From Duodenibacillus massiliensis (GTDB lineage Bacteria; Pseudomonadota; Gammaproteobacteria; Burkholderiales; Burkholderiaceae_F), in the NCBI RefSeq assembly GCF_900128485.1, contig NZ_LT635856.1:14045-78044 (forward strand): a DNA stretch of 64,000 bases, in the 5' to 3' direction. The position numbers were made by a program, and so were the translations under genes. Below the pieces are notes generated by a model, which worked only from the letters and a program-made list of their open reading frames with translations, was not told the DNA's origin and searched no databases. Of the stretch, positions 8,806-64,000 are shown in pieces (position 1 is the stretch's first letter; each line of letters opens with the position of its first letter).

Positions 8806-9341
8806 AACACAAATTCCACATGCATCCGACGCGGATCAACACCACGCCGCCTGCAGCATTCGAGGTACACCTGTTTTTCCCAGTACTCGACCAGGTCCAT
8901 CAGCTCTTTTGCGCTGTTGTACGTGAGATTTCGCGTACCGATGGTGTAGCTTTTGACGCGGGAACCACCTTTTGTGTAATCAGCAAGAGCCGCCTTTGCC
9001 TGAGCTAAACATTTTTGCGCTTCAGTCCGGTGGTCAAAGCCCTTGTCGGTCATGGCTGCAATCACACGAAAATCCCGCAGCGCAACCGTTTTCCGGTACG
9101 AATCCCCGTAGGTCATCTGCATCAGGAGGATGGACTCCCCTTCCGGCAGCTTCTCTGACGCTTCCGGAGAAAGCTCAATGCGCACCGTATCGCTGCGTCT
9201 TTTCGCCGGCACCTTTACCAGGCAACCGGCAGCCGTCCGGATGAAAGCCGTTGGTTCGGCATCCGGATGCAGGCACTGAAAATGCTCTTTGACATTCACC
9301 ACCCACTCCCGGCTGTCCCCGGCAATAAGTCTCTCTACCAT
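8802..9341 (-). CDS. Head-joining protein with gpW-like C-terminal half
   Basis: 179 residues between large terminase and portal, where lambda-like phages encode gpW. The C-terminal segment (AQAKAALADYTKGGSRVKSY, then a helix with LMDLVEYWEKQ) follows the gpW pattern of helix, short basic hairpin and helix. The N-terminal 95 residues form a beta-rich extension not found in the 68-residue lambda protein and not recognised. It overlaps both neighbours by 4-7 bases. Confidence 0.6.
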   Translation of the reverse strand: MVERLIAGDSREWVVNVKEHFQCLHPDAEPTAFIRTAAGCLVKVPAKRRSDTVRIELSPEASEKLPEGESILLMQMTYGDSYRKTVALRDFRVIAAMTDKGFDHRTEAQKCLAQAKAALADYTKGGSRVKSYTIGTRNLTYNSAKELMDLVEYWEKQVYLECCRRRGVDPRRMHVEFVL

Positions 9342-21499: not shown

Positions 21500-21715
21500 A
21501 TGTGCAAACGTAAGCAGCTTCCGCCGCCGCCAGATGCACTGGGCGTTTTGATGCTTGATGCCCGTCAGGTCGCCGCAGCATTAAACATCGGAGTGTCGTC
21601 ACTTTGGAAAGCCGTAAAGAACATCCCCGGCTTCCCCAAACCCATAGCGATCACGCCGAGGACAGTTCGCTGGCGTGCCAGCGAAGTCGCAAAATGGGCG
21701 GCCGGTACTAATTAG
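21500..21715 (+). CDS. AlpA-family excisionase-like regulator
   Basis: 71 residues. LDARQVAAALNIGVSSLWKA, followed by PGFPKPIAI and RWRASEVAKWAA, is the AlpA/winged-helix excisionase pattern, including the aromatic W of the wing. Such proteins bend attachment-site DNA for excision or activate integrase transcription. It is the last gene of phage A, next to a terminator and the tandem 12-base repeats at 21785, which could be its or the integrase's binding sites. Confidence 0.8.
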   Translation: MCKRKQLPPPPDALGVLMLDARQVAAALNIGVSSLWKAVKNIPGFPKPIAITPRTVRWRASEVAKWAAGTN

Positions 21716-21867: not shown

Positions 21868-21910
21868 AAAAACCCGCATGAATAAAGGCGTGTATGGCGG
21901 CTCCAAAAAT

Positions 21911-21932
21911 CTTCCCTAGTTTTTTCCCTAGT
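21911..21932. repeat. CTTCCCTAGT repeat pair, candidate phage B integrase arm sites
   Basis: CTTCCCTAGT followed after two T by TTCCCTAGT. The same 22-base block with one mismatch lies at 62573-62594 beside the phage B integrase, and an inverted relative at 62635-62652. They lie inside the AACTGGGCC repeats, as arm sites should. The rest of 21809-22030 contains no gene. Confidence 0.55.
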
Positions 21933-39484: not shown

Positions 39485-41152
39485 TTACATCACGCCCTGA
39501 GATGGTTGCTCTTGTTCGGGACTCATCGCTATATCCGCGCCGCCGACACTGCCTGCCGCCTGCCCCAAATCCTTGATAGTGGAAGCCGCCTGTGCTGCCT
39601 GCATCTGCTGCTGTTGCTGCGCCTGCTCTTCGGCGCGCTGCTTGCGAATGATTGCCACCCGAGAGCCCGCAACGATCATGGACGGCGGAACGCCGTTCAT
39701 ATCCGCCAAGAGATCAATCGTTTCATCGGCATCCAATTTGTCGAGCGCTTCCGGACGCATCTGCGCCAGAACGCCAATCTGCTGCACCGTGCGCATAACG
39801 CCGTCCACCGCAGAACTTTTCTGCATCTGCGCCAGTACCGAGATGTATTCAACATTGAGTTCTTTCCCCTGCATTTCCTGCGGAGGTTCAGGCACCAAGT
39901 CGGCCTCCACTAGGTATCCAAACGCCGTAGAGACCAACGGATCAAGCATTTCCGTATGAAGGCGCTCAAGCACCGGCCCAAGCATCATCACCTTTTCCTG
40001 TTCCAACGCCTGGATTTCGGTAGCCGTACGGTCAGTACCTTGATTCGCCGCGATCATCTGGAAGATGTTCACATTGAAGTAGCGCTGTATCTGCGCCCGT
40101 GCGTCTGCGATCTGCGCCTGCAGCATTTCAGGCGATGCCTGCACTGCCCAAGCCGAGCGAATCACGTCGTTGTCCGCAGGGTCAACCGGGATGCGACCGC
40201 CGGGACGGAATAGCTGCATTGCGCCCTTGTACTTTGTCGGGTATTGAATCGGTGGATTCGAGAGATAATCCGTGAGGATGCCCATCTGCTTTTGCAGGCG
40301 CTGCAGACTTTTAGCCGCCGACAAGGCTTTCGCACCAGGGCCACGCCCGTAAACAGAGCCCGCCGTAGTGAGCCATCGGGGACACAACGCCGGAAATTGG
40401 TCATAGCCGGACTCACCCAGCACCTTGCCGTCACTGCGGCCTTGTTCCCAATACACAGACCGCCACGGCTTATTGTGGTTGTCGTGCTTCATCACGTTAC
40501 GGTCAAGACGCGGCTCAATGGCGTGCATCACGTCAAAGCGACGGTACGGGTTATCGCGTAAGGAACTTCTGACATCGGTGCTGACAGCATCGATACCGAA
40601 CTTCTGCACCATCTGCTTCGCCGTCATGCTGATATGACGATAAACCGTGTCGATACGGTCGAACGGATCAGCCGCGAGCCAGTATTCCCCAACCGTGAGA
40701 TTCATCATATCGATGACACGGTCAGGGTGACGCTGCACAATGGAACACGCAGTCCCGAACGCCGGAAGCTCAAGATATGAGCGATGCAGCGAGTTGTAGA
40801 CCTCCGACTTTGCGAAATACATCAGGATCAAGTCCTGAAGTTCAGACAGCCACTGTTTCACATCCGGCGATTCGTCTAAGTCCGGATCCATTGTCGTAAG
40901 ACGCAGCCACGGCCGCGACGGCGAACTGACGCCCGCCAAGAGTCCTGCCGCCAAAATATCGGCACTGTCTGCGGCTTCGGCATCATACAGGCGCGTGTAG
41001 CGCTTACCGCCCTCGTAGCCACGCTCACCGGGGAACGCCCCCAAGTCCGGCACCTCATAGTCGCGTATGTCGTACCAAAGGTTTTCCCACGTCTCACGTT
41101 CCGCTTTCAGCCCAGCCAAGCGCTGCTGAAGCTGCTTGACATCAACTGCCAT
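39485..41152 (-). CDS. Portal (head-tail connector), T7/BPP-1 type
   Basis: 555 residues. RDYEVPDLGAFPGERGYEGG, YDAEAADSADILAAGLLAGV, PSRPWLRLTT, the central FPALCPRWLTTAGSVYGRGP and the C-terminal NQGTDRTATEIQALEQEKVM are hallmarks of the podovirus connector family. A Gln-rich tail follows. It forms the dodecamer at the packaging vertex. Confidence 0.93.
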   Translation of the reverse strand: MAVDVKQLQQRLAGLKAERETWENLWYDIRDYEVPDLGAFPGERGYEGGKRYTRLYDAEAADSADILAAGLLAGVSSPSRPWLRLTTMDPDLDESPDVKQWLSELQDLILMYFAKSEVYNSLHRSYLELPAFGTACSIVQRHPDRVIDMMNLTVGEYWLAADPFDRIDTVYRHISMTAKQMVQKFGIDAVSTDVRSSLRDNPYRRFDVMHAIEPRLDRNVMKHDNHNKPWRSVYWEQGRSDGKVLGESGYDQFPALCPRWLTTAGSVYGRGPGAKALSAAKSLQRLQKQMGILTDYLSNPPIQYPTKYKGAMQLFRPGGRIPVDPADNDVIRSAWAVQASPEMLQAQIADARAQIQRYFNVNIFQMIAANQGTDRTATEIQALEQEKVMMLGPVLERLHTEMLDPLVSTAFGYLVEADLVPEPPQEMQGKELNVEYISVLAQMQKSSAVDGVMRTVQQIGVLAQMRPEALDKLDADETIDLLADMNGVPPSMIVAGSRVAIIRKQRAEEQAQQQQQMQAAQAASTIKDLGQAAGSVGGADIAMSPEQEQPSQGVM

Positions 41153-41447
41153 TCGCGCCCCCGAGCGTACTCGTTTGGTTAAACAGCTTCGTTTTCTTCA
41201 GCTTGCCTCCCGTTAGATCAGTAGCCGCCCGCTTGCTGGACGTGTTTGAAGCAAGCAAAGAATCAATATCCGGTTCTTTGCCGTTAGCCTTCTCGCGTTC
41301 CTGCGCCTCGTTTTCATAAGCTTGCTTAGTGGCCTGATACTGCTTTTCTGCCAAAGCCTTCTCACGATCCAGTTGGCGCTTTTGGGTATAAATGTTGAGG
41401 CCGCCGGTGACAGCACCGATAATTGCCCCAGCGATTGTCTGCGCCAT
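41142..41447 (-). CDS. Head/neck microprotein 1
   Basis: 101 residues. N-terminal Gly/Ala/Ile segment (MAQTIAGAIIGAVTGGLNIY), then a helical charged region with ALAEKQYQATKQAYENEAQE, and the C-terminus KKTKLFNQTSTLGG. The tail resembles those of the next two upstream small genes. It overlaps the portal start by 11 bases. Probably a minor head or internal protein; family name not known to me. Confidence 0.6.
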   Translation of the reverse strand: MAQTIAGAIIGAVTGGLNIYTQKRQLDREKALAEKQYQATKQAYENEAQEREKANGKEPDIDSLLASNTSSKRAATDLTGGKLKKTKLFNQTSTLGGANGS

Positions 41448-41449
41448 AG

Positions 41450-41767
41450 CTACGCCCCCAAAAGCTTTTTCTTCTGCAGCTTGAGATCATCCGTACTGAT
41501 GCCGCCAAGCCCCGTCAACGAATCGCCCGGACCGGAGTCAGCGCCGAAGTCACCAAGCCCTGAAAGCTGAGAGGAATCAGCGTCGTTCCCGTTGGACTTG
41601 CGTTGTTGCTGGTCCAACAAAGATTGCTGCTTCTTTTTCTGCGCTGCTAATTCGGCCTCCTGCCGACGTGCTTCTTCCTTGGCCTTGTCGCGGGCGTCTT
41701 TGCCCGTTACTTTGTTGAAAGCCTTCTTTACGGCCTTTACCGGATTTAATTTAGAGAAAAATCCCAT
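41450..41767 (-). CDS. Head/neck microprotein 2
   Basis: 105 residues. A basic amphipathic N-terminus (FFSKLNPVKAVKKAFNKVTG), a Gln/Lys-rich coiled coil (LAAQKKKQQSLLDQQQRKSN), a Gly/Ser/Asp linker and a C-terminal LKLQKKKLLG. Same gene neighbourhood and similar tail as its neighbours. Function unknown. Confidence 0.55.
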   Translation of the reverse strand: MGFFSKLNPVKAVKKAFNKVTGKDARDKAKEEARRQEAELAAQKKKQQSLLDQQQRKSNGNDADSSQLSGLGDFGADSGPGDSLTGLGGISTDDLKLQKKKLLGA

Positions 41768-41770
41768 TTG

Positions 41771-41977
41771 TTAGCCCCCCAACGTATTGCGCTTGCGGAA
41801 TAACTTTCCGCCTTCACCGTCCGCAGCACTAGACGTACCAGCGTCCATTGCCGCGTCGTCTGCCCCTGTGGATTCAGCACTAGCAGGCTTGCCAGGAGTG
41901 CCGTTGTTACGCCTACGGGATGTAATGCGAGAAACAATGTTGGCAAGGCCCATTTTCAAAGCAAGGCCATGGCTCAT
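41771..41977 (-). CDS. Head/neck microprotein 3
   Basis: 68 residues. Basic N-terminus (GLANIVSRITSRRRNNGTPG), Ala/Ser/Thr-rich middle and C-terminal KLFRKRNTLGG, matching the KLFNQTSTLGG end of microprotein 1. The ATG overlaps the stop of a 24-residue upstream frame. Function unknown. Confidence 0.55.
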   Translation of the reverse strand: MSHGLALKMGLANIVSRITSRRRNNGTPGKPASAESTGADDAAMDAGTSSAADGEGGKLFRKRNTLGG

Positions 41978-42048
41978 TTCTTGTCACCTCCAAGTCGATG
42001 CTTTCGCAAATGCCGACGTTCAAACTCTTCTGCTGAAGGTTCAGCCAT
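41974..42048 (-). CDS. 24-residue peptide gene
   Basis: ATG 42048 overlaps the acetyltransferase stop (TGATG) and has AAGGAG seven bases upstream; TGA at 41976 overlaps the next ATG. The product is highly charged (EEFERRHLRKHRLGGDKK) and contains an LGG near its end like the following microproteins. Overlapping stops and starts on both sides favour a real, coupled gene. Confidence 0.45.
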   Translation of the reverse strand: MAEPSAEEFERRHLRKHRLGGDKK

Positions 42049-42482
42049 CACAGACTCCTTATAAATGTCACCTGACAGCCTGAATGCGGCCGTTTCTGCA
42101 AAGCCGCGGCGAGTGGTGCTTGCTCGTCGCAGATCCACTGAAACGACGTACACCCCCGCTTTTTTGCCTCACGCTCACACATCACAAAAAGCCGTCCGGG
42201 CACCATCGTCCCTCGGTATTCGGGCAATACGAAAATCGTGTCGTTGCAGGCCGTAAGTTCCCCAGAATGCTGATGAGGCGCGACAAAGATCGACGCAGCC
42301 CCCACCGCTTTTTCTCCGTCGTAGGCGACAAAGGCAAACGCCAGCGAGTTTTCGGAGAGTGCGCGGTAGAAGTCTTCCGTCGGATCAAAGATCGGGCCGT
42401 TACCTGATTCGCGGAAATTCGTTTCAAGCAAATCTCGGTGCTTCCGCAGCAGGTCATAACAGGACATGAGTACGTATCGCAT
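42048..42482 (-). CDS. GNAT-family N-acetyltransferase
   Basis: 144 residues from ATG 42482. The frame extends to ATG 42512, but that codon lies inside the promoter-like motif, so the shorter start is preferred; neither has a clear Shine-Dalgarno. NDTIFVLPEYRGTMVPGRLF with MCEREAKKRGCTSFQWI forms the acetyl-CoA-binding beta4-helix3 motif, and AYDGEKAVGAASIFVAPHQH the preceding strands. Acetyltransferases occur in the same place in other podoviruses; the target is unknown. Confidence 0.78.
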   Translation of the reverse strand: MRYVLMSCYDLLRKHRDLLETNFRESGNGPIFDPTEDFYRALSENSLAFAFVAYDGEKAVGAASIFVAPHQHSGELTACNDTIFVLPEYRGTMVPGRLFVMCEREAKKRGCTSFQWICDEQAPLAAALQKRPHSGCQVTFIRSL

Positions 42483-42510
42483 ACCCGCAGTTTCAGCGGG
42501 GCGACGGTAC

Positions 42511-42545
42511 ATTTATGGACGACAATCGCTCAATCGTCCATAAAC
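42511..42545. promoter_or_regulatory. Divergent pair of late promoter-like motifs (4 and 5 of 6)
   Basis: Minus-strand TCGTCCATAAAT (42522-42511) and plus-strand TCGTCCATAAAC (42534-42545) form an inverted repeat with 11 bases between. Each copy points at the gene downstream of it: the acetyltransferase operon leftwards and the Com-like gene (ATG 42600) rightwards. This is the strongest sign that the motif is a directional promoter element. Confidence 0.7.
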
Positions 42546-42599
42546 TTCAAAGCCTTGCAAATACGATGCGTTCATGAAATTTCATGGGAGGGTACTGCA

Positions 42600-42812
42600 A
42601 TGGAAATTCAAGTCCGTTGCCGATGCGGCAAACGCCTTTTCGACCTTTCGCTAGACAGGCCTCCAGGCGGACGCATCTACATCTTGTGTCGCTGTAAAAC
42701 GATGAACGTCATCGACCTTTCAGCGTATTCCAATCTGCAGGCCCATTCGGAGCCTGTTTCAAAAGAGGCCCCTGAGCCCACTTCTCAGCGCCAAGCGAGC
42801 GCACAATCCTGA
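42600..42812 (+). CDS. Com-like zinc-finger protein
   Basis: 70 residues from ATG 42600, GGAGGG seven bases upstream. VRCRCGKRLFDLSL and IYILCRCKTMNVI give two Cys-x-Cys pairs in the arrangement of phage Mu Com, a zinc-ribbon translational activator of mom. The C-terminal half is disordered. No mom-like DNA-modification gene is seen nearby, so the target is unknown. First gene of a plus-strand cassette within the late region. Confidence 0.65.
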   Translation: MEIQVRCRCGKRLFDLSLDRPPGGRIYILCRCKTMNVIDLSAYSNLQAHSEPVSKEAPEPTSQRQASAQS

Positions 42813-42845
42813 GAACCTTGAGTTCCATAGCAAAAGGAGTTTGCT

Positions 42846-43463
42846 ATGGCTGAATTTGCTTCTAAAGGCCTCGCCAACGGCGTAGGCATCCCTGCCCTTG
42901 TTTTGGGCTCTCTCGGCTTTCTTGGCTCTGCCAACAACGGCAACGGCGGAATCCTCGGCGGCCTTTTTGGCGGCGGAAACTGCAATCAGGTTTCTGCGCT
43001 GATGGCTGAGAACGCTAACCTCCGCGCGGAGAAGTACTCTGACAACAAGAACGCCGAGGTGTACGTCGCCTCTCGCGCTGAGAACAAGGCGCTACGTGAC
43101 GAGCTCATGGGCTTTATCCGCCCGCTCTCCAACGAGGCCGCGCAGAACCGTGAACGCATCGCTGTGCTCGAAACCAACGTGGCCAAGAACGCCGAGATCG
43201 CCGACCTGCGCGAGAAGCTGGTGCGCGCCGAACTTGGCGCCAAGATTGACACTGTTGCGCAGACGTGCGGCTGTGGTATTGCCCAGCTCAACAACGCTGT
43301 CGCCGGTATCAACACCACGTTGAACCAGATCACCCACACGGTTATCCCGCGCACAGCGATCTGTCCTGAAGTGATGGAACGCTACAACTCGTGGGTTGCG
43401 CCCACAGCCGCAGCTCCGGCAGTTCAGCCGGTGACTGGCAGCATCAACGTTAACCGGGGTTAA
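42846..43463 (+). CDS. Coiled-coil phage protein, probable structural or accessory
   Basis: 205 residues, AGGAG upstream. Residues 10-45 are a Gly/Leu/Asn-rich hydrophobic stretch (VLGSLGFLGSANNGNGGILG), followed by a coiled coil (residues 50-130) and a conserved-looking Cys pair (CGCGIAQLNNAVAGI), then ICPEVMERYNSWV. I recognise it as a type common in gut phages but know no established function. Confidence 0.6.
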   Translation: MAEFASKGLANGVGIPALVLGSLGFLGSANNGNGGILGGLFGGGNCNQVSALMAENANLRAEKYSDNKNAEVYVASRAENKALRDELMGFIRPLSNEAAQNRERIAVLETNVAKNAEIADLREKLVRAELGAKIDTVAQTCGCGIAQLNNAVAGINTTLNQITHTVIPRTAICPEVMERYNSWVAPTAAAPAVQPVTGSINVNRG

Positions 43464-43466
43464 GCC

Positions 43467-43802
43467 ATGAGAATGCCGATTGGAAACTTGCCTGCGGTGG
43501 TTGTGGAATTTGCTCAGCAAGTCCTCATCCCGGCCGCAGAAAAGCAGGGCGGTTCTCTGCCCTTCGCCGTCGGCATCGTCTCGGGGCTCGTCGCACAGCG
43601 GGCCCCGGCGATGATCGAACCTTACCTGCCGATGCTCAAGTCTTTGGGAGCGGTGGATGAGCAAAACCGAATCGACGTGGACTTACTGTACGGCGAAGCC
43701 GCAAAGAACCTTGAAGCGCACCCGTTCGCCATCGGGCCGTACAAGCCTGATCGAGGCGACCTGGATGCGCTGAAGGAAATCATGAACCGGCATGGAGAAT
43801 AG
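43467..43802 (+). CDS. Hypothetical protein of the plus-strand late cassette
   Basis: 111 residues beginning four bases after the previous stop. Hydrophobic-amphipathic segments (LPAVVVEFAQQVLIPAAEKQ, SLPFAVGIVSGLV) without a clear membrane span, and an acidic C-terminus. Not recognised. Confidence 0.55.
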   Translation: MRMPIGNLPAVVVEFAQQVLIPAAEKQGGSLPFAVGIVSGLVAQRAPAMIEPYLPMLKSLGAVDEQNRIDVDLLYGEAAKNLEAHPFAIGPYKPDRGDLDALKEIMNRHGE

Positions 43803-43804
43803 TC

Positions 43805-43984
43805 ATGGAAATGAAGGAACTTATGAAAGCCCGCGCGGAGCAATCCATGCACTGCCTGCTCGAAAAGATCGACAAGGTATGCGATGAGGCCCGCGACAGT
43901 GGCGGCTTAAGCGGTGAGGACGTTCGCACGCTTGAAAAAGCGTGGTGCGCCATCGCCACTATAAAGGCTGTCTGCAAGGAGTAA
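43805..43984 (+). CDS. Hypothetical protein, 59 residues
   Basis: ATG 43805, two bases after the previous stop; TAA 43982-43984. Helical and charged (MEMKELMKARAEQSMHCLLE), with four Cys overall. Last gene of the cassette, followed by a terminator. Not recognised. Confidence 0.5.
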   Translation: MEMKELMKARAEQSMHCLLEKIDKVCDEARDSGGLSGEDVRTLEKAWCAIATIKAVCKE

Positions 43985-44063
43985 CGAAAAACCCCGGTTC
44001 ATCGCCGGGGTTCTCATTGCAATCTCAGTTCTACGAGTCGCTGCTGAAACGGGGTTTCGTTAC
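43981..44063. terminator. Convergent terminator between plus-strand cassette and tail spike
   Basis: AACCCCGG (43990) with CCGGGGTT (44005) makes a strong stem just after the cassette. In addition GTAACGAAA (43981) pairs with TTTCGTTAC (44055), enclosing the whole gap, and overlaps the spike stop. T-runs are short, so efficiency is uncertain. Confidence 0.65.
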
Positions 44064-46348
44064 AGCCGCGCCTCAATCTGCGCCAGGCGCCATCTCTGGT
44101 AAGCGGCTTCAAGTGCAAGAGCCTCTTCATAGCGGATGCCGTACCGATCGCCCGCAGGAGTCACGAGACGATGCACAACGTGAGTCTGAGCAGGCGTGAC
44201 GGTACCATCTTCTGCGACGACCTCTGGCGTATCGACAACCTCTACGTCTTCGTATTCGTCATCCCATTTGTCGTAGCAGAGAAGACCGTAACGAGTTGCG
44301 TCCAGACCTTCGGACTCGAATGCCGCCTTCACCTCCTGGGCAACGACGCCGACGTGGATTCGAGCGTCGCCGCCCTTCTTCTCTACAGCGTCCTTGAACT
44401 GGAAGACCTTGAAGTTCACCTTGCTCCAGGCACGCATGAGGGCGTCGTCGGGGGAGTCGATCGAAGTCTTCGACCGCTCGTCGGACGTGTTGATTGTGCC
44501 TGTAGCCGCGAAAAGTTGAGACCAACGTGCCGTTGCTGATCCTAACGCCTGAGCATTACTCAAACCGGGGTTAAGAGATTTTTCTGCACTTAGTAAAACT
44601 CGTGCAGTAAATGTAGATCCATCCCACTCCCCAATAAAAAATTGAGTATTTATCGGATAGGAAATGTGCCCTGATTTTGAATATGCATTTCCAAATCGAA
44701 AGTGCGGACGGTTTACCCCAACGAATGTTGACGTTGCATTTTGAGCAAAATCTGACTCACAAGCACTGACATTAGTTGCAACGAAGTCTCTTAGCTGCCC
44801 CGTAGATGTTTCTGACGATGTCACCAAGACTTTATTTTTCAAGCCTACTATGTCAATGTTTTCAAGAACAACTCGCTCGTTATTAGATATGATGCCCGCA
44901 GCTAATCCAGATTGCTTTTCTACAATGAAATTTGCAATTTTATCTATGGATCCAGCCTTATCGAAAAGAGCATACGTATAGCCTTCTAGATTATCCACGA
45001 AAACATTTTCGACGATATTGTGCTTAGACGATGCAAAATCCGATACCTGCGTCGTAAACAGCCCGTAGTATTCCGAAGTACCGCTTACATAGCTAATATC
45101 TCTGAAGGCGAGATTTCTATATACGCCAAAGAATCCGTTGAGGACGCATTGAACCTTCGCCACGTTTTCAGAACAAATCCCATAAGTTTGCAACCCGTCC
45201 ACGACTACGTTTGCATAACCTTCCACCTTGACAGGTCGGAGTTTGGTTGCGCCCTCGTATGAAGCACTCAAATCTCTTAACGTAATGTCAGTGAAAATAA
45301 CATTCCTTGCACAAGTCTTTTCTGCAAGTTCAGTCTGAGGCACTTCCGTAGGAACGCACCAGGCAACACAACCGTTGGCAACCTTTTCAGCAGTTGAAGC
45401 TGTAACTGTGATGTTTCTTGCAGGCGGCTCTTGATGGTGCCCAACAGCAGAATATGCGCTTGCATAGCCATAGACGTAGCAGCTTGTAGCAGTGCAATTT
45501 TCACTACCCCCATCAAATTCAATGCCGTTTTGATTTTCTTTTGCTTTGACAGATCGATTAAATATTGATTTATGACCATCAACCAAAACATTTTTAGCAA
45601 AGTGTGTCGTTAAACCATCGTCGATGACTGAGTTAATTGTCTTTGTATCTCTAAAGACAATTTGCTCACATCCGCCAGACACAGCATCGTAATTAAAGTG
45701 ACCAACATCGTGGTTGTTTTTTAATTCAAAAGTGCTACAGTCAAACCCGTGCATAACTGCATCTATGACAGTAACATTTTCAACTAAAGCACCTTTTACG
45801 CCTGCGAGCTTTACACCGCAACCACCATAACTATCAGTAACCTGAGCGGCTCTATCCCACCCGTTCATCTTGATAGCTAAGTTTTTGATTGTGATGTCAG
45901 TATCATAAGTTGTTTGTGCGACTGACTGGTACTTCGCTTTATATCTAGAAAGATTTACGAAACCATCAAGTTCGTTCTTTGCCGTTTTAGCCACGACAAA
46001 TATCGTTTTCTTTTCGCCATCTCCATAAACGAAGCTGTCAGAGGGCAACGCAATATCTGACGAAATTAAGTAGACGCCTGAAGGCATGTAGCAAGCGACA
46101 TGTCTGTCAGTGCTTTGAACAATCGCGGCCTGAATGGCTGCAGTGTCATCATGGTGGCCATCGCCAACAGCTCCAAAATCCTTCACATTGACGACGTCCG
46201 CGAAGCGGTACCGGAGCTGACGCGGGTAGACGGTACCGGCCGCGGCCACCGGCAACATATCCCCGATGCCTGTGGGCGTTTCCACAATGTGAATATCCTT
46301 GCCCTTCTTCTTGGCGAGGGCGACGCCGGAATGGTATTGGATTGTCAT
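44060..46348 (-). CDS. Tail spike with pectin-lyase fold and S74 chaperone domain
   Basis: 762 residues. VVNVKDFGAVGDGHHDDTAA (residues 52-71) opens a right-handed beta-helix like polysaccharide-degrading spikes. The C-terminus from about residue 620 (INTSDERSKTSIDSPDDALM, HVGVVAQEV, YGIRYEEALALEAAYQRW) is an intramolecular chaperone of the S74 type, which trimerises the spike and cuts itself off at the Ser-Asp. The central about 1.5 kb is visibly AT-richer than both ends, suggesting exchange of the receptor-binding part. No enzymatic residues assigned. Confidence 0.9.
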   Translation of the reverse strand: MTIQYHSGVALAKKKGKDIHIVETPTGIGDMLPVAAAGTVYPRQLRYRFADVVNVKDFGAVGDGHHDDTAAIQAAIVQSTDRHVACYMPSGVYLISSDIALPSDSFVYGDGEKKTIFVVAKTAKNELDGFVNLSRYKAKYQSVAQTTYDTDITIKNLAIKMNGWDRAAQVTDSYGGCGVKLAGVKGALVENVTVIDAVMHGFDCSTFELKNNHDVGHFNYDAVSGGCEQIVFRDTKTINSVIDDGLTTHFAKNVLVDGHKSIFNRSVKAKENQNGIEFDGGSENCTATSCYVYGYASAYSAVGHHQEPPARNITVTASTAEKVANGCVAWCVPTEVPQTELAEKTCARNVIFTDITLRDLSASYEGATKLRPVKVEGYANVVVDGLQTYGICSENVAKVQCVLNGFFGVYRNLAFRDISYVSGTSEYYGLFTTQVSDFASSKHNIVENVFVDNLEGYTYALFDKAGSIDKIANFIVEKQSGLAAGIISNNERVVLENIDIVGLKNKVLVTSSETSTGQLRDFVATNVSACESDFAQNATSTFVGVNRPHFRFGNAYSKSGHISYPINTQFFIGEWDGSTFTARVLLSAEKSLNPGLSNAQALGSATARWSQLFAATGTINTSDERSKTSIDSPDDALMRAWSKVNFKVFQFKDAVEKKGGDARIHVGVVAQEVKAAFESEGLDATRYGLLCYDKWDDEYEDVEVVDTPEVVAEDGTVTPAQTHVVHRLVTPAGDRYGIRYEEALALEAAYQRWRLAQIEARL

Positions 46349-46350
46349 GA

Positions 46351-48606
46351 TTAAGCACCCGTGCCGCTACCGTCGTAGACCACGGCAGTCTTTGCACCGA
46401 CATACATATTTGATTTCATACTGGATCGGCAATCGCTGTACTGCGAGTACATGGGCCCCAACACAAAGAACCGCACACCGGTGAAGCCGTCGGGGAAAGT
46501 GAAGGACGCCAGATTCGAATACAGACTTAAGGAGGAGCCCGAGTTCGAGTACACGAGGTAATTCGTCGGAAGGTTTGACGACATTCCGGAGAAGTCGAGG
46601 GTATTGATTCGCAGGTCGCAGCGCAGGGTATAGATGGCGTACTGAGGCGACAACGATGCGCCGTCCGAGTTGAAGCTACAGTTTCGAATATCGACCTCTC
46701 CGCCTTCGGCATGAACAATCATCCGTATTCCACCGTAGTCCTGAACCCCCTTGAACGTGAGCTGTGAGAATCGCACCGTACTGTCGTTGATTCGGAGAGG
46801 CGGAAGAACGGCTGTCGTTTTCCCTGCCCACTGCTGCACGACAACTAGGCGAAGCAGCCCTTGCAGATACAGAACGCTGACGCGGGAGAAGTCCCCGGCC
46901 ACGTTGATAACCGCGCGGTATGGCTTCTTAGTCTGCTGCAGGCACCAAATTGCCCGGTTCAAAGAGTTGAATGGCTTAGCCGCGGTACCATCCCCGGCGT
47001 AGGCCGCCGAGGCATCCACATAGATGGCGACGTTCTCCTGCATCAGATTACCGAAAAAGCCCCCGCTTTCAGCGAGGACTCTATCCTGTGTTTGCGGTAA
47101 CGCTGATGGCTCCGCCAAGTCGAAATCTGCGAGATAGAAAGGAATTTCATTAGGGCCGTCGTTAAAGCCAAGAAGCATGGCCCCCTTGAAGAAGTCCACG
47201 CTTTCCAACTCGGCGAACGATCCCCCAAGGAACCACTTCCACACGACTTCACACTTTGCCGTATCAAACACGACAATGGCTTCCTCGCGCTGCAGAACAT
47301 TCGTACTGCTTGTGGTACTGCGCGGGAAGAACAACAAGCCCTTGTACACACCAAAGTCCTGCCCTGTCGCCGGAGCCCATGTTGGATAGCTCCACGGGAT
47401 AGAACGCTCCAATACCCATTCCGTCGTGTACACCAAAACCTTGGCATTGGCATAGGCGTAGAACCGATCGGTATAGGAGTCGTAGGCGATAGCGCCGCCA
47501 CTAGCTGCAGGCAAAGCGATAAAACCTTCGCGCGTCAATGTAGCCGCGTCAACGACAGCGATAGCCTGAGCCACGTCACTAGCCAACGTCGTGACGTACA
47601 ACTTTCCATTGCAGTACGTCAGACCATTAGCGTGATAGAGATCAGTGTAATCCGCGGACGTTCGGGCGCCCGTAGACACCGTGTATTTCACAATTCGCTG
47701 AGACGCGTTGTCCTGCGTGATTTCAGCGAACCAAACGGTATCCTCTCCATCGGTGCAAAAGCCTTGCAGAAAATAGCGCGAGTTTGAATCCCGCCAGTCA
47801 ACCGTCGTGGTAAAAAGGATGCCGGGATCAAGGCGTTCGGTAAATTGACGAGTCCGCCACCACGGAGAAGCCAGCACGGCGCTCTTGCTGAGCATATCGG
47901 CCAACTTCTCCGCAATCGTCTGAAACAGCTTTTCCAAGGTCTCGCCGCCCACCAACCTGTTCGAAATATCCTCCCCGGCGTTGCCCGGATTGCCGTAGCC
48001 CTTGACCCAAAAGTAACCGTCGTAGGGATAAGCCTCGACCTCTTCAAGGGAGTTCACCAGGTGGGGAATATCCCACGAATAACGTTCGATAAAGCCCTTG
48101 ATGGCTTCGCAGGCGGCAAGCGTTTCCTTGGACGCCCCGGCTGCAGCGATAGCGTCGTCCACCGCGGCGAGCAACTTATCGCGCAGCTGACGAGGGGTGA
48201 TCGCGTCCGTCGGATCGGTGATGAGCGCGCGGCTGACTTGCTCGACAAGTTGCTGACAGAGAATCGTCAGCCGGTCGAGCGAATCATTGAGCACCGTCGG
48301 AAAGAACGCCCCTCGGTTTGTGAAAACCGTCGGCTGTACATAGGCTTCGCCCGAGATAACGGCAAGCGCCGCGCCTTTTACCAGTGGCTCCTTAAGCGTA
48401 ATCTTGCCGCCAGGGTTGATATCTTGGTCGTCATTAAGGACGCAGACGTACGCATTTGGGTTAAGAACCGCATCAACGCCATGGGGCGGCGCAACGTGAA
48501 CTTCGGCATCCTCAGACTTCAGTAATTTGAAAGAAAAAGAAAACTGCGTCTGCACACCGTCGCCGACATAAATATCGCTTCGGCGAAGTTGAGATTGAAT
48601 AGCCAT
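46351..48606 (-). CDS. Tail fibre/spike with gp17-like N-terminal adaptor
   Basis: 751 residues. The first 150 residues (YVGDGVQTQFSFSFKLLKSE, AFFPTVLNDSLDRLTILCQQ) are the podovirus tail-attachment domain. The middle (about 270-500) looks like a beta-propeller (YCNGKLYVTTLASDVAQAIA, DSYTDRFYAYANAK), and from 560 a beta-helix (AIYVDASAAYAGDGTAAKPF). It probably anchors to the tail and carries the second spike, whose own N-terminus lacks an adaptor. 51 bases downstream of a late promoter-like motif. Confidence 0.85.
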   Translation of the reverse strand: MAIQSQLRRSDIYVGDGVQTQFSFSFKLLKSEDAEVHVAPPHGVDAVLNPNAYVCVLNDDQDINPGGKITLKEPLVKGAALAVISGEAYVQPTVFTNRGAFFPTVLNDSLDRLTILCQQLVEQVSRALITDPTDAITPRQLRDKLLAAVDDAIAAAGASKETLAACEAIKGFIERYSWDIPHLVNSLEEVEAYPYDGYFWVKGYGNPGNAGEDISNRLVGGETLEKLFQTIAEKLADMLSKSAVLASPWWRTRQFTERLDPGILFTTTVDWRDSNSRYFLQGFCTDGEDTVWFAEITQDNASQRIVKYTVSTGARTSADYTDLYHANGLTYCNGKLYVTTLASDVAQAIAVVDAATLTREGFIALPAASGGAIAYDSYTDRFYAYANAKVLVYTTEWVLERSIPWSYPTWAPATGQDFGVYKGLLFFPRSTTSSTNVLQREEAIVVFDTAKCEVVWKWFLGGSFAELESVDFFKGAMLLGFNDGPNEIPFYLADFDLAEPSALPQTQDRVLAESGGFFGNLMQENVAIYVDASAAYAGDGTAAKPFNSLNRAIWCLQQTKKPYRAVINVAGDFSRVSVLYLQGLLRLVVVQQWAGKTTAVLPPLRINDSTVRFSQLTFKGVQDYGGIRMIVHAEGGEVDIRNCSFNSDGASLSPQYAIYTLRCDLRINTLDFSGMSSNLPTNYLVYSNSGSSLSLYSNLASFTFPDGFTGVRFFVLGPMYSQYSDCRSSMKSNMYVGAKTAVVYDGSGTGA

Positions 48607-59002: not shown

Positions 59003-59140
59003 GTACAGCCGCCTTACTTCCGTATGAGCGGATTTTTTGTGCATAGCAGTCTCCCTTTACGGGCGGACTGTATGGGGCATGCTTGCATGCGCCGGTACCC
59101 TTTTGCACCGGTACGCCAACCCGTACAGTCTGCCCACCAC
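59003..59140 (+). ncRNA. C4 antisense-like RNA upstream of the Rha regulator
   Basis: The gene-free interval 58923-59188 contains a hairpin CCGC/GCGG followed by ATTTTTTG (59009-59038). A second large structure follows: GGGCGGACTGTATGG (59061) pairs with CCGTACAGTCTGCCC (59121), enclosing GCATGC-TT-GCATGC and CCGGT/ACCGG hairpins. This sequence and architecture resemble the phage P1/P7 C4 antisense RNA, which blocks translation of the downstream icd-ant genes. CTCCCTTT (59051) is roughly complementary to the AAAGGAGG ribosome site at 59175. Rfam match not checked. Confidence 0.55.
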
Positions 59141-59188
59141 GATTGGCGTCGTGAGGGCAGTTCTCAAACTGCAAAAGGAGGACACGCT

Positions 59189-59464
59189 ATGCAAGCGTTC
59201 CAAGGTGCTGCTCAAACGCAGCCGTCAACATTCAATCTCCCGTTCGCCATCACGGCGCTCATCAAACACCAGCTGACCTCCGGCGAAGCCAAGGACTACG
59301 CGATTATGTCGTGTTCCGAAGCCAAGAACATCCTCATCGCCGTAGCCGATTCGGCCGAAAGCGATAGCCAGATGCTTTCCACCGCAGGGCTTCTCAGCGT
59401 CATCAAATCCGCCGCTTCCATTTTGGAATGCGCAGAACTCCTCGTTAATGAGACGGAGAAATGA
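59189..59464 (+). CDS. Small protein in the icd position upstream of the antirepressor-like gene
   Basis: 91 residues from ATG 59189, AAAGGAGG eight bases upstream; the frame is open further left but that is the C4-like RNA. FNLPFAITALIKHQLTSGEA, KNILIAVADSAESDSQMLS: helical. Its stop overlaps the start of the Rha gene (ATGA), so translation of the two is likely coupled, as for icd and ant of P1. Confidence 0.6.
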   Translation: MQAFQGAAQTQPSTFNLPFAITALIKHQLTSGEAKDYAIMSCSEAKNILIAVADSAESDSQMLSTAGLLSVIKSAASILECAELLVNETEK

Positions 59465-60018
59465 AAATGACTCATACCGCTATCGTTACCCCGCCCGTCG
59501 TCCAAGATCATGACGGGCGTCCCATGACCACGAGCTTCCAGGTTGCGAAGTACTTCAACAAACGTCACGACCACGTCCTCCGTGACATCGACAACCTGAT
59601 TAAAAAGCGCCCCGATTTAGGTGTGTCCAATTTTGGGGAGTCTTTTGAAAACAAGGCTTTAGGTACTGTTCAGAACCACAAGGTTCGTTTTTATTACATG
59701 GATCAAAAAGGCTTTACTCTGCTCTCCATGGGCTTTACGGGCGACAGGGCTCTCGGCTTCAAAATCGCTTATATCGACCAATTCGAGGCTATGGCGAAAG
59801 CTATTGCCAACGCAAAGACGAACTACCTGCAAGACTACATCAACAAGCTGACGATGCTGGAGAACAAGAGAGAACGCTCGTCCGTTGCTGGGCAAGCCTT
59901 ACATGAGTGGAAGACCGAAAAAGGACAACTGGAACTCGAAGTGAAGGAAGCGGAAAAGAAGGTGCAGCCGGAACTGCCGCTGCAGATCAGCGTTTCCATC
60001 GAAAATAAGGAGAAGTAA
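59461..60018 (+). CDS. Rha-family phage regulatory protein / antirepressor candidate
   Basis: 185 residues. MTTSFQVAKYFNKRHDHVLR, DIDNLIKKRPDLG, YYMDQKGFTLLSMGFTGDRA and FKIAYIDQFEAMAKAIANAK are the Rha domain. A coiled C-terminal part follows. Rha proteins interfere with lysogenic regulation, and related KilA/Ant proteins relieve repression. With the non-cleavable CI and the C4-like RNA, a role in induction is plausible. ATG 59467 is an alternative start with better ribosome-site spacing. Confidence 0.85.
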   Translation: MKMTHTAIVTPPVVQDHDGRPMTTSFQVAKYFNKRHDHVLRDIDNLIKKRPDLGVSNFGESFENKALGTVQNHKVRFYYMDQKGFTLLSMGFTGDRALGFKIAYIDQFEAMAKAIANAKTNYLQDYINKLTMLENKRERSSVAGQALHEWKTEKGQLELEVKEAEKKVQPELPLQISVSIENKEK

Positions 60019-60019
60019 A

Positions 60020-60253
60020 ATGAAACAGATCGACCTCACCCCTATCTATAAGGCCGCCGCGAAGGTTATGGCAGAAAACGGTATCGAAGAAATCCGCCTC
60101 CGCCTTTTGAAGGATGATGACGGCCCGTCAGCCATCGACTTCGAGATCAACGGCGCGGGCTATATGTCCAACTTCGAGGAATATATCCCCACCATCAAGG
60201 CCGTTGAGTCCGACATGATGAAGTTGGTCATCAGCCGCCCTGACAACGCGTAA
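60020..60253 (+). CDS. Hypothetical early protein, 77 residues
   Basis: ATG 60020 one base after the Rha stop, with AGGAG upstream. MKQIDLTPIYKAAAKVMAEN then EEIRLRLLKDDDGPSAIDFE: compact alpha/beta. Last gene of the operon, followed by a terminator. Function unknown. Confidence 0.6.
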   Translation: MKQIDLTPIYKAAAKVMAENGIEEIRLRLLKDDDGPSAIDFEINGAGYMSNFEEYIPTIKAVESDMMKLVISRPDNA

Positions 60254-60279
60254 CCATCTTCGCGGCGTCACGAAAATGG

Positions 60280-60317
60280 TCCCCGCCAACCGAAGGCTGA
60301 CGGGGATTGTTTTTATA
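60280..60317 (+). terminator. Terminator of the phage B early operon
   Basis: TCCCCG (60280) pairs with CGGGGA (60301), with an inner GCC/GGC extension, followed by TTG and five T. It faces the convergent accessory genes. Confidence 0.75.
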
Positions 60318-60810
60318 TAAAATCAGTCATTTCATTGATTATATTATCATGCGTATCAGGAATTAAACTAACCAATTCGCCAGTTATCGAATCTACGATA
60401 TTGGTCGGAACATTTCTTTTCTTGGACACATATATATAAACAACACCGAGAAAGGCCTTAAATTTAAGAGTTTCCGCCAAAGACAATCGCATCAATCCTT
60501 GATTATCCAATAATATTTGTTTGAGTGCAAAAAGGAATAGAATTTGAGCCGCACCGGCAGTCCCATATTTCCTAGAAAAAATCACCATCCGCACCCTAAT
60601 ATCTCTATTTGTATATAGCGACCCCGTAGCTAATTTAGCTACATCATTCGCAATCTTAGCCGCTTCCTGATTAACACCAACAACGCTGACTATCCTTTCC
60701 ACTTCTTTATTGATAGAAACCTGACGCGTAGCATTGTTGAAACAGAAGAGCGCGACGGCCAAAACAATGCCACCAATGACGATCCCGATAATCAGTCCTG
60801 AGCTCATCAT
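60313..60810 (-). CDS. Membrane-anchored accessory protein
   Basis: 165 residues from ATG 60810 (GGAG upstream, overlapping the previous stop). Residues 3-24 (SSGLIIGIVIGGIVLAVALF) are a membrane anchor; the rest is a helical cytoplasmic or periplasmic domain (LATGSLYTNRDIRVRMVIFS, FLFALKQILLDNQGL). AT-rich codons unlike the phage genes around it. Paired with the secreted protein upstream and placed beside the integrase, a typical lysogenic-conversion site. Not recognised. Confidence 0.65.
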   Translation of the reverse strand: MMSSGLIIGIVIGGIVLAVALFCFNNATRQVSINKEVERIVSVVGVNQEAAKIANDVAKLATGSLYTNRDIRVRMVIFSRKYGTAGAAQILFLFALKQILLDNQGLMRLSLAETLKFKAFLGVVYIYVSKKRNVPTNIVDSITGELVSLIPDTHDNIINEMTDFI

Positions 60811-61301
60811 TTTGCACTCCCTCGTTTGACAGCATTCATCACCGTGCAAAGCAATTGAAGCTCGCTTTCAATTACGGATTGAGGCATAGGATAAAGCCAC
60901 TCATTTTGGGAAAATTGCTCTGTCACATCGCCCTCTGCAAAATAATCACTAAAGCCGATATTGTTTAGCTTTTTTATTCTCCACCCTTTGCAATCAATTT
61001 CATTTAAACTTGCTAATGATTTTGTTTGCGGTTGCCCTTTTACACTCGCGCCTTTTGCGTAGCTAATAATCGACCAGATTTTATTTTCATCATGAACGGG
61101 GCCGACAAAAAGAAAAGCGTTTAAATTTTTCAAAAACGTACCGGGGCAAATTTCACCACGCATCTCCTTTTCAACTAACGAAGAACCTTTTTTCGGAACG
61201 GTCATTTTGAACCCGCCGACGACAATTTCTTCCGCCGAAAAAGAAGGCACAGACATAGCAATACAAGCCACTCCCGCCAAACAGGCAATAACCCTTTTCA
61301 T
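60807..61301 (-). CDS. Secreted accessory protein
   Basis: 164 residues. MKRVIACLAGVACIAMSVPS, then FSA before AEEIVV, is a Sec signal peptide with likely cleavage after Ala23. The mature domain has three Cys and is beta-rich (FLFVGPVHDENKIWSIISYA), with no known motif. AT-rich. Overlaps the integrase stop and its membrane partner by four bases each, so all three can share a transcript and be expressed in the lysogen. Confidence 0.65.
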   Translation of the reverse strand: MKRVIACLAGVACIAMSVPSFSAEEIVVGGFKMTVPKKGSSLVEKEMRGEICPGTFLKNLNAFLFVGPVHDENKIWSIISYAKGASVKGQPQTKSLASLNEIDCKGWRIKKLNNIGFSDYFAEGDVTEQFSQNEWLYPMPQSVIESELQLLCTVMNAVKRGSAK

Positions 61302-62545
61302 TTGTCCACCTTGCTAAAACAAAAATCCGCCCACGCGGTCATCAATTCACGCCGGCGCAGGAATAACGTCTGCCGCTCATACGCACCGTTGTAGCCGTCG
61401 TTCAGTTTGTGGTGCAGACAAAGATGCGCCACCCGCACGTCAAACCGCTTATCGTTTCCCAAACTGTCGTCCTGACTCCAGGTCATAAACGTGGCCCGAG
61501 CGATTCCGTGCTGAGTCGGACGTACCGTCTTCCCGCGCTTCAGAGTCTCGGCCTTGTCCGTCCAATCGCCAGGCGTCAATTTGACAAGCCGCCCGAGCAT
61601 CGTATCCGTCATCACGTTACCGTAACGATTCGGGAAGATCAGCCCTTCATGCGGTCGATCAATGCTTTTCAGAAACTCAATCACCTTCGGGGCCAGCGGC
61701 ACAATCAATGCGCCGTTGCTGGAGACCTTCAGTTGTTCGGGCGGGACTGTCCAAATCTTCTCTTCCCAGTCTATCTGATCCCAACGGGCTTCCCGCGCCG
61801 TCTGCGAACGCGTCGCCGTCAGAATGGAAAACTCAAAGCACTGTCGGCTACTGATCTGCTTTTCGGCCATAGAGGCAGCGAAGAAGTCCGGCAACTCGCT
61901 TACCGCCAACGCCCCGCGGTTTTGTTTGACGTGTCGATTGTTCGGCAAAAGAAACTGCAACGCCCCATGACGATCCGCCGGATTGTCCCTGTCGGTGTAG
62001 CCCTTCGCCTTCGCCCAGTCGAAGACCTTTTTGGCGAAACCGAGGCACCTATCCACAATGTCCGGTTTATCCCAAATAGCCGCCGCAATCTCGGCCACGT
62101 CCGCAGGCTTGATCTCGTCAATAAGCTTGTCACCGATTCTCGGCCACACGTGACAACGCATCCGGCTTTCGAAAACACGATGAGACTTTGAAAGCTCCTC
62201 CCAGTTGCCTACGTCGATATTCCACTGCATGTACTCGTCGCAGACTTTTCGGAAAGTTTTCTTTGCCACGGACACGGGCTTTTTCTTTTTCGAGGCTTCG
62301 ATCTCTTTCACAAAATCTTCAGCACCAAGTCCCATCAGCCGGGCAGTCATAGCCCGCGCATTCGCCAAAGCGATACTTGCAGCACTGCCCAGACCTACGT
62401 CATACCTCTTGCCATTTACCTGACGACGCAGCACCCAAGCCCGTGAGCCACCTTTAATCACGAGGTACAAACCTTTGGTCAACTCGTCCCGATATACGCC
62501 GTCGCCAAGATTTCCCAAGGTTCTTTGTGAGAGTTTGGCTTTCAT
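61298..62545 (-). CDS. P4-type tyrosine integrase of phage B
   Basis: 415 residues. N-terminal DUF4102-like domain (YRDELTKGLYLVIKGGSRAW, KRYDVGLGSAASIALANARA), central SAM-like domain and catalytic core: Arg246 (TATRSQTAREARW), His346/Arg350 (HGIARATFMTW), His378-379 (LCLHHKLN) and Tyr389 (NGAYERQ). It integrates and excises phage DNA at a tRNA-end-type site. The start faces the right attachment region, the usual P4-type orientation. Confidence 0.94.
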   Translation of the reverse strand: MKAKLSQRTLGNLGDGVYRDELTKGLYLVIKGGSRAWVLRRQVNGKRYDVGLGSAASIALANARAMTARLMGLGAEDFVKEIEASKKKKPVSVAKKTFRKVCDEYMQWNIDVGNWEELSKSHRVFESRMRCHVWPRIGDKLIDEIKPADVAEIAAAIWDKPDIVDRCLGFAKKVFDWAKAKGYTDRDNPADRHGALQFLLPNNRHVKQNRGALAVSELPDFFAASMAEKQISSRQCFEFSILTATRSQTAREARWDQIDWEEKIWTVPPEQLKVSSNGALIVPLAPKVIEFLKSIDRPHEGLIFPNRYGNVMTDTMLGRLVKLTPGDWTDKAETLKRGKTVRPTQHGIARATFMTWSQDDSLGNDKRFDVRVAHLCLHHKLNDGYNGAYERQTLFLRRRELMTAWADFCFSKVDK

Positions 62546-62572
62546 AAAAACTCCTCAACCAGGGAAGATTCT

Positions 62573-62652
62573 CTTCCCTAGTTTCTTCCCTAGTTGAGGT
62601 TAACACAAATTGATAAAGGCGAACACTTGTGAATAGGGAAGAACTAGGGAAG
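62573..62652. repeat. CTTCCCTAGT repeats upstream of the phage B integrase
   Basis: CTTCCCTAGTTT-CTTCCCTAGT at 62573 and an inverted AGGGAAGAACTAGGGAAG at 62635. The first copy matches the block at 21911 with one mismatch in 22. Probably arm-type binding sites and autoregulatory sites of the phage B integrase. Confidence 0.6.
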
Positions 62653-62763: not shown

Positions 62764-62921
62764 TAATTCGAATTTCAGATATTCTCAGATAATCTCCCTC
62801 AGTCTCCATTGTTCACCTAATACGATGAATTTAAATGGAAACACTGCCTACCGTCAGTCTCTGTTGTTCTCTGTCGTTCTATATCAAACTCCCTCCAGCT
62901 CGCGAATGATTTCACCCAACT

Positions 62922-62985
62922 ATGCTCCCAATGGGTATGATTTCTTCGGAATTTTTCATTTTTTCTTCGGAACTTTTGGGAGCAT
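62922..62985. repeat. Arm-like repeats upstream of the element C integrase
   Basis: ATGCTCCCAAT at 62922 and inverted TTGGGAGCAT at 62976 match the tandem repeats at 21785. Between them TTTCTTCGGAA occurs twice (62941, 62962). They lie just upstream of the integrase start and may be its arm sites or its promoter operators. Confidence 0.6.
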
Positions 62986-63010
62986 AGCCTCCAACCCGCA
63001 GGAGAGCGGC

Positions 63011-64000
63011 ATGAGAGTAGCTGAACGCCTCACAGCGATACGACTGAAGACCCTTGAAAAGGACACTGCCTGCGGCGTTGTGCCGGGGCTTTACGTGACT
63101 GTCCGGAAGCTCGCCGACGGATCGTTTGCCAAGTATTTTGTTCTCAAAGATCGAAAACAAAAACGCTCCTACACCATCGGAAAATTTCCGGACATCTCAC
63201 TCTCAGAAGCATTCACCAAGGCAGCAGAATGGCGAGACCTCATCCTCAAGGGCGATGACCCTTCCAAACAACTCTTAGAGGCCTCCTCTCCCCAAAAACT
63301 GACGTATGAGAATCTCATGTTTCAATGGGTCGAATTCAACAATAAACGCGGCCGGTGGAAAGATGACAAGAAACCTCGACTCGGCGTGTGGCAAGGATAT
63401 TTCAGAAACCACATTCCAGACTCGCTGCGCCAGTGTCCGGCCGCTGAATTAACGCCCGAGATGTTTGCTGACGCGCTGGCGGAAAAATGGCGGACCATGA
63501 CCAACACCCCGGAAAAGATTCTTGCTGACACCAGGAATGCCATTGACTGGGCAATCCGACAAGAAATCATTCCGCCAATGATCAACCCGGCGCGCATTCA
63601 CGGCGGAAAACTTGGAGACCTACTGCCGTTGAACAGACCGGAAACCGGCCACGAACCGGCTCTCCCCGTCCAAAAGATGCCGGCATTCTTCAAAATGCTC
63701 ATGGAATACACCCTTTCGAGCCCTGCCGCCAGATGCTTGGCCTTTGCCATCCTGACGGCAGCCAGAAACTCTACCGCTCGAGAGGCCACTTGGAGTGAAA
63801 TCCAAAAGGACGATGACGGCAACTGGATCCACCTGATTCCGCGTTCACGCATGAAGGTCAAGGCCGAAGGCTTGCCGTTTGACCGAAAGACCCCTCTGAG
63901 TTCCGTTGCGGTCAGGCTGCTGGAAACCATGCCGAGAGTCAAATATGAAGGACAGGATTACCTCTTTCCCAGTATCTTTCATCGTAGCCTCAAGCCGATG
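63011..64000 (+). CDS. P4-type tyrosine integrase of element C (partial)
   Basis: ATG 63011 with AGGAGAG upstream; 330 residues are visible and the frame runs off the window. DUF4102-like N-terminus (GVVPGLYVTVRKLADGSFAK, RSYTIGKFPDISLSEAFTKA), central core-binding domain, and the catalytic Arg252 in LTAARNSTAREATW. The His-x-x-Arg and Tyr lie beyond the edge. Only distantly similar to the phage B integrase, so it serves a different element or phage A. Confidence 0.9.
   Translation, partial: MRVAERLTAIRLKTLEKDTACGVVPGLYVTVRKLADGSFAKYFVLKDRKQKRSYTIGKFPDISLSEAFTKAAEWRDLILKGDDPSKQLLEASSPQKLTYENLMFQWVEFNNKRGRWKDDKKPRLGVWQGYFRNHIPDSLRQCPAAELTPEMFADALAEKWRTMTNTPEKILADTRNAIDWAIRQEIIPPMINPARIHGGKLGDLLPLNRPETGHEPALPVQKMPAFFKMLMEYTLSSPAARCLAFAILTAARNSTAREATWSEIQKDDDGNWIHLIPRSRMKVKAEGLPFDRKTPLSSVAVRLLETMPRVKYEGQDYLFPSIFHRSLKPM

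What the first reader, a model, noticed from the sequence alone, without database searches (positions are those of the whole stretch)
60313..61301. Secreted/membrane protein pair beside the integrase
A signal-peptide protein and a membrane-anchored partner, AT-rich and overlapping each other and the integrase, occupy the position where prophages carry lysogenic-conversion or defence genes. Neither matches a family I know.
Basis: partly seen in the sequence, partly recalled or inferred. Interest (0 to 1): 0.6.

Follow-up and report, generated by a model that had tools for sequence, protein, structure and literature searches.

The report
Prophage cargo pair beside integrase
A temperate phage lying dormant in a bacterial genome carries two extra genes next to its insertion enzyme, one for an exported protein of a known surface-protein family and one for an unknown membrane protein, most likely to change the cell envelope and perhaps keep rival phages out, which is an ordinary kind of prophage cargo except that the second protein has no known relatives.

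Summary
Two intact genes on the minus strand follow the integrase in one run (int–A–B), each junction a 4-base overlap, closed by a 12-bp hairpin terminator. A (60807–61301) has a Sec signal peptide. B (60313–60810) has one strong N-terminal transmembrane segment. Both are AT-rich (41% and 39% GC against 49–59% in neighbouring prophage genes).

"Neither matches a family" is wrong for A: it scores above cut-off for Pfam PF16747 (Surface-adhesin protein E, 2e-11) and keeps the family's cysteine pair. It is right for B: no relative in viral, phage, plasmid or genome collections.

The host element is a roughly 40.8-kb BPP-1-like podovirus prophage. The same integrase-adjacent slot is empty in one relative prophage, holds a SocA/Panacea-type pair in another, and two small ORFs in a third, so it is a turnover cargo site. 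Other Adhesin_E genes found stand alone, with no integrase and no B.

Most likely function is envelope-level lysogenic conversion, with superinfection exclusion the best single guess (about 0.4, inferred from position and topology, not shown). It is a new member of a known kind with one ORFan partner. Interest is modest.

The parts
60807..61301 (-). Gene A, 164 aa: Sec signal peptide (about residues 1-23, likely cleavage after SFSA) followed by an Adhesin_E (PF16747) domain; Cys104 and Cys152 probably form the family's disulfide
   Evidence: translation; Pfam E 2.1e-11, 44.5 bits over cut-off 23.7; alignment with invariant S95, C104, G124, C152; profile match to H. influenzae protein E chains E 0.006
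60313..60810 (-). Gene B, 165 aa: single N-terminal transmembrane segment (about residues 6-24), net positive remainder, predicted cytoplasmic (N-out/C-in) by the positive-inside rule; no relatives
   Evidence: translation; hydropathy and charge; no Pfam/PADLOC match and only transmembrane-region hits in PHROGs and NCBIfam; no homologues
61298..62545 (-). Tyrosine integrase, first gene of the int-A-B run
   Evidence: Phage_int_M 9.7e-13, Arm-DNA-bind_3 8.7e-8; PHROG 1 integrase 2.5e-35
60280..60306 (-). Hairpin terminator (12 bp stem, 3 nt loop) between the convergent early operon and gene B; T-rich tail stronger for the + strand
   Evidence: fold of 60254-60312: -36.3 kcal/mol, z -6.7
62572..62594 (+). 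Probable integrase arm-type sites at the integrase end (TCTTCCCTAGTTTCTTCCCTAGT, plus an inverted copy at about 62642)
21910..21932 (+). Matching 23-bp direct repeat (22 of 23) at the other end of the prophage; with 62572 it marks an element of roughly 40.8 kb
60020..60253 (+). Last gene of the convergent early operon (77 aa, unknown), flanking the cargo slot

Best explanation
An accessory (moron) gene pair carried in an integrase-adjacent cargo slot of a BPP-1-like podovirus prophage. By layout, A and B are read behind the integrase as int-A-B and stop at a hairpin terminator facing the early operon. A is exported to the periplasm or cell surface as a small disulfide-bonded Adhesin_E domain. 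B sits in the inner membrane with its body probably in the cytoplasm. The most likely job is envelope-level lysogenic conversion, and the best single guess is superinfection exclusion: A blocks or binds an incoming phage component or its receptor outside the inner membrane, and B acts at the DNA-entry step at the membrane. Shown: genes, layout, family of A, foreign composition, prophage bounds, turnover of the slot. Inferred: expression in the lysogen, joint action of A and B, exclusion.
For: Operon-like 4-nt overlaps and terminator. Foreign base composition. Prophage boundaries and BPP-1-like structural gene order. The same slot next to related integrases holds different cargo: a SocA_Panacea antitoxin-type pair (L041), two small ORFs one with a transmembrane segment (L091), nothing (L040). 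More distant integrases of the set have type IIG or type I restriction genes downstream (L045, L047). Published precedents: integrase-adjacent antiviral hotspots in P4-like satellites (psu-int) and K139-like phages (cI-int) (PMC9122126); the Ltp exclusion lipoprotein gene next to int, the common extracytoplasmic location of exclusion proteins, and the soluble periplasmic Glo protein of Vibrio cholerae (PMC3952083).
Against: No PADLOC match for A or B. No known exclusion protein is an Adhesin_E member as far as I know. The family's characterised member is a host-binding adhesin. No recognisable promoter directly in front of A or B. A and B have no conserved association anywhere else. If B is N-out/C-in, it has almost no periplasmic part to contact A.
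Confidence: 0.4

Rival explanations
1. Lysogenic conversion for the host rather than against phages: A is a secreted or surface adhesin-like protein that alters attachment or envelope properties of the lysogen, and B is an unrelated or accessory membrane protein.
For: A belongs to the Adhesin_E family, whose characterised member, H. influenzae protein E, binds vitronectin (PMC7857515). Relatives in the same bacterial family are stand-alone secreted proteins with no phage link seen.
Against: A has no lipobox, so it may stay periplasmic, unlike the lipoprotein protein E. The family name covers many proteins of unknown role (own knowledge). B is unexplained.
Confidence: 0.27
2. B (with or without A) is an abortive-infection or toxin-antitoxin type effector that damages the membrane on infection.
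For: A related prophage carries a SocA_Panacea-type pair in the same slot. B is a small basic membrane protein.
Against: A is exported, which is unusual for an antitoxin. No family match to TA or Abi proteins.
Confidence: 0.15
3. Transient, selectively neutral cargo: recently acquired foreign genes with no benefit, about to decay.
For: Foreign composition; single occurrence of the pair among all genomes searched.
Against: Both frames are intact with ribosome-binding-like sequences, overlapping starts and a clean terminator. Family-defining residues of A are kept.
Confidence: 0.13
4. The genes serve the phage's own cycle (integrase co-regulated, for example an envelope step in excision, lysis or release).
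For: Same transcription unit as the integrase by layout.
Against: The closest integrase relatives and phage BPP-1 lack the genes beside int.
Confidence: 0.05

Closest known systems
Adhesin_E family (PF16747; H. influenzae protein E, PDB 3ZH5/3ZH6/3ZH7)
   Same: Exported small domain; Pfam match over cut-off; invariant Cys pair (104/152) at nearly the spacing of the protein E disulfide 99-148 (PMC7857515).
   Different: About 16-29% identity to the members aligned here; no lipobox; lies in a prophage next to an integrase; vitronectin binding and adhesion not tested.
Integrase-adjacent antiviral hotspots (P4-like psu-int, K139-like cI-int)
   Same: Small, variable accessory genes inserted beside the integrase between conserved genes (PMC9122126; here).
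   Different: Here the slot lies 3' of a minus-strand integrase and convergent to the early operon of a BPP-1-like podovirus; no known defence gene in this copy.
Ltp-type superinfection exclusion (Streptococcus phage TP-J34) and Glo of Vibrio cholerae
   Same: Small extracytoplasmic proteins; Ltp is coded directly next to int and transcribed in the prophage state (PMC3952083).
   Different: No sequence relation shown; Ltp is a lipoprotein of a Gram-positive host; activity untested here.
Bordetella phage BPP-1
   Same: Collinear structural genes, the best at 45-58% identity, and the same overall layout with int at the right end.
   Different: No reverse transcriptase or Mtd match in the window; different early genes; integrase on the opposite strand; BPP-1 has no such pair beside int.

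Membership tests
Adhesin_E (PF16747), gene A | Profile score above the curated cut-off | tested here: met
   44.5 bits against 23.7, profile positions 25-108 of 109
Adhesin_E (PF16747), gene A | Conserved cysteine pair (disulfide 99-148 in protein E) | tested here: met
   C104 and C152 invariant in 9 aligned members; the profile aligns the corresponding cysteines of protein E
Adhesin_E (PF16747), gene A | Export by Sec signal | tested here: met
   N-terminal signal by hydropathy and cleavage motif; lipobox absent; no dedicated predictor available
Adhesin_E (PF16747), gene A | Six-stranded antiparallel sheet with packed helix | tested here: inconclusive
   single-sequence AlphaFold model too poor (pLDDT 35.6)
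Adhesin_E (PF16747), gene A | Adhesion or vitronectin binding | not testable with these tools
   needs binding assays
Prophage accessory (moron) cargo in an integrase-adjacent slot | Inside prophage boundaries | tested here: met
   23-bp direct repeat at 21910 and 62572 around phage genes
Prophage accessory (moron) cargo in an integrase-adjacent slot | Variable content at the same place in relatives | tested here: met
   empty in L040, SocA_Panacea pair in L041, two small ORFs in L091; only a few relatives available
Prophage accessory (moron) cargo in an integrase-adjacent slot | Transcription in the lysogen | not testable with these tools
   no RNA data; promoter scan uninformative
Known anti-phage defence or exclusion system | Match to a known defence family | tested here: not met
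   no PADLOC hit for A or B at E up to 5
Known anti-phage defence or exclusion system | Reduced plating of superinfecting phage | not testable with these tools
   needs plating assays

The most novel reading that the evidence does not exclude
A and B are a two-part envelope exclusion system in which a secreted Adhesin_E domain works with an otherwise unknown inner-membrane protein to stop DNA entry by other phages; this would give the widespread but mostly uncharacterised Adhesin_E family a phage-related role and found a new family for B.
Probability: 0.18. Interest if true: 0.55.

Novelty: new member of a known kind. Interest (0 to 1): 0.27.

Why it matters
If the exclusion reading is right, it would link a family of small secreted domains, named after one adhesin, to competition between phages, and would point to the integrase-adjacent slot of BPP-1-like podoviruses as a place to look for new defence genes. 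If not, it is still a tidy case of a prophage giving its host a secreted surface-type protein.

Tried and rejected
AlphaFold on A and B alone gave unusable models (pLDDT 35.6 and 42.8), so no fold search was made. The only distant hit to B outside its own genome (E 0.008) lies antisense inside a long TPR-like frame and was rejected. PHROG and NCBIfam hits to B cover only its transmembrane segment and short flank. A solved-structure hit to a designed repeat protein (8pjs) is noise from a short repeated stretch. Viral-contig scans for A, B, the integrase and the 185-aa early protein found no relatives. Viral contigs sharing the RecT-like gene either end before the slot or have a different early region. 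An exact att core was not found; only arm-type repeats mark the ends. A literature search linking Surface-adhesin protein E to prophages returned nothing relevant.

Full report
Observation. On the minus strand, the integrase (61298-62545) is followed by gene A (60807-61301, 164 aa) and gene B (60313-60810, 165 aa). Each junction is a 4-base ATGA overlap, and both starts have purine-rich ribosome-binding-like sequences. B ends just before a 12-bp hairpin that also closes the convergent early operon (60306-60280; -36.3 kcal/mol for the region, z -6.7). A and B have 41% and 39% GC with GC3 of 0.38-0.39, against 0.63-0.76 in the integrase and neighbouring early genes, so they look acquired.

What A is. 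A starts with a Sec signal peptide without a lipobox, and scores 44.5 bits (E 2.1e-11, cut-off 23.7) against Pfam PF16747, Surface-adhesin protein E. In an alignment of nine members from this and other genomes, four positions are invariant: S95, C104, G124 and C152. A profile from that alignment finds the solved protein E chains (3ZH5/3ZH6/3ZH7) at E about 0.006 and aligns the cysteines. Protein E has a conserved disulfide 99-148 and binds vitronectin (PMC7857515). So A is very probably a disulfide-bonded exported domain of this family. Binding of any host factor is not implied by that.

What B is. B has one strong transmembrane segment (mean hydropathy 3.0 over residues 6-24), no charged residue before it and 17 K/R against 13 D/E after it, which suggests N-out/C-in with a cytoplasmic body (positive-inside rule, inference). 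No Pfam, PADLOC or solved-structure match was found, and PHROG/NCBIfam hits cover only the transmembrane segment and its short flank. There is no relative in IMG/VR, phage or plasmid records or the GTDB contig set, and none other than itself in about 830 genome searches across family, order and class draws, some genomes being drawn more than once. The one marginal hit was spurious. B is an ORFan at present. The pattern scans reach close relatives only, so remote relatives of B are not excluded.

The element. A 23-bp direct repeat (22 of 23 identical) at 21910 and 62572, made of the same CTTCCCTAG units that recur inverted at about 62642, marks the two ends of a prophage of roughly 40.8 kb; these look like integrase arm-type sites. 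Inside it, structural genes are collinear with Bordetella phage BPP-1, the best at 45-58% identity, but the BPP-1 reverse transcriptase and Mtd have no match. The repressor, YqaJ recombinase, RecT-like gene and a pRha antirepressor-type gene lie on the plus strand towards the slot (the RecT-like label is inference from position beside YqaJ, as Pfam gave no match).

The slot in relatives. The two closest integrases among 66 other genomes of the bacterial family (55% and 53%) have directly downstream, respectively, nothing but the convergent early genes (L040) and a two-gene operon with a SocA_Panacea antitoxin domain (L041). A third prophage, with a 72% RecT-like gene and a different integrase, has two small ORFs there, one with a transmembrane segment (L091). 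More distant integrases in the set are followed by type IIG and type I restriction genes (L045, L047); those may be islands rather than phages. The place therefore turns over, as described for integrase-adjacent hotspots of P4-like satellites and K139-like phages (PMC9122126).

Does the pair hold together? It cannot be tested, because the pair occurs once. Relatives of A (15 of 67 genomes of the family carry an Adhesin_E gene over cut-off; a few more in the order) were checked with their neighbours: none has B, or an integrase of the types tested, nearby.

Mechanism. Shown: two intact foreign genes in an integrase-led run inside a prophage, A with an export signal, B with a membrane anchor, slot variable. 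Inferred: the genes are expressed in the lysogen and act on the envelope. [quoted passage not shown] Host-directed conversion by an adhesin-like protein is the main rival (0.27). An abortive-infection or toxin-antitoxin role for B (0.15) and neutral cargo (0.13) remain open.

Verdict. This is a new member of a known kind of prophage cargo, of modest interest.

Noticed in passing
window 59055-59141 (+) with 59461-60018: A C4 antisense RNA (Rfam RF01695, 70.5 bits, E 1e-11) lies upstream of an ORF that overlaps a pRha/ORF11CD3-domain gene: the layout resembles the P1/P7 c4-icd-ant immunity operon (own knowledge), with pRha in the antirepressor position.
   Followed up: partly
window 1-21715: A second, unrelated prophage abuts on the left: tail sheath, head protein, portal, terminase, O-like replication protein and CI-like repressor, ending in an HTH (excisionase-like) gene at 21500-21715 with no integrase recognised next to it.
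   Followed up: partly
window 62825-64000 (+), full gene in L027:4870-6387; third integrase L027:10966-12147: A second integrase faces away from the first across about 280 bases, and a third integrase follows about 4.6 kb further on, so the contig probably holds a tandem array of integrated elements.
   Followed up: partly
L027:6663-8626 and 8628-10598 (C17, just right of the window): A 2-kb direct tandem duplication (97% identity, 1972 bp) carrying endolysin-like and holin-like genes.
   Followed up: no
window 39485-48606: The prophage has BPP-1-like structural genes but no match to the BPP-1 reverse transcriptase or Mtd; two long tail-spike/fibre genes (44060-46348, 46351-48606) lie between the adaptor and the terminase, the first AT-rich.
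   Followed up: partly
window 15429-15528: Four 22-bp near-tandem repeats (GACCTGCAACTGTTGCACCYCT) inside the O-like replication gene of the left prophage, possibly iterons of its origin.
   Followed up: no
L041:5475-6451: In the 53%-identical integrase relative the slot holds a SocA_Panacea gene overlapping a 138-aa gene with no Pfam or PADLOC match, a candidate toxin partner.
   Followed up: partly
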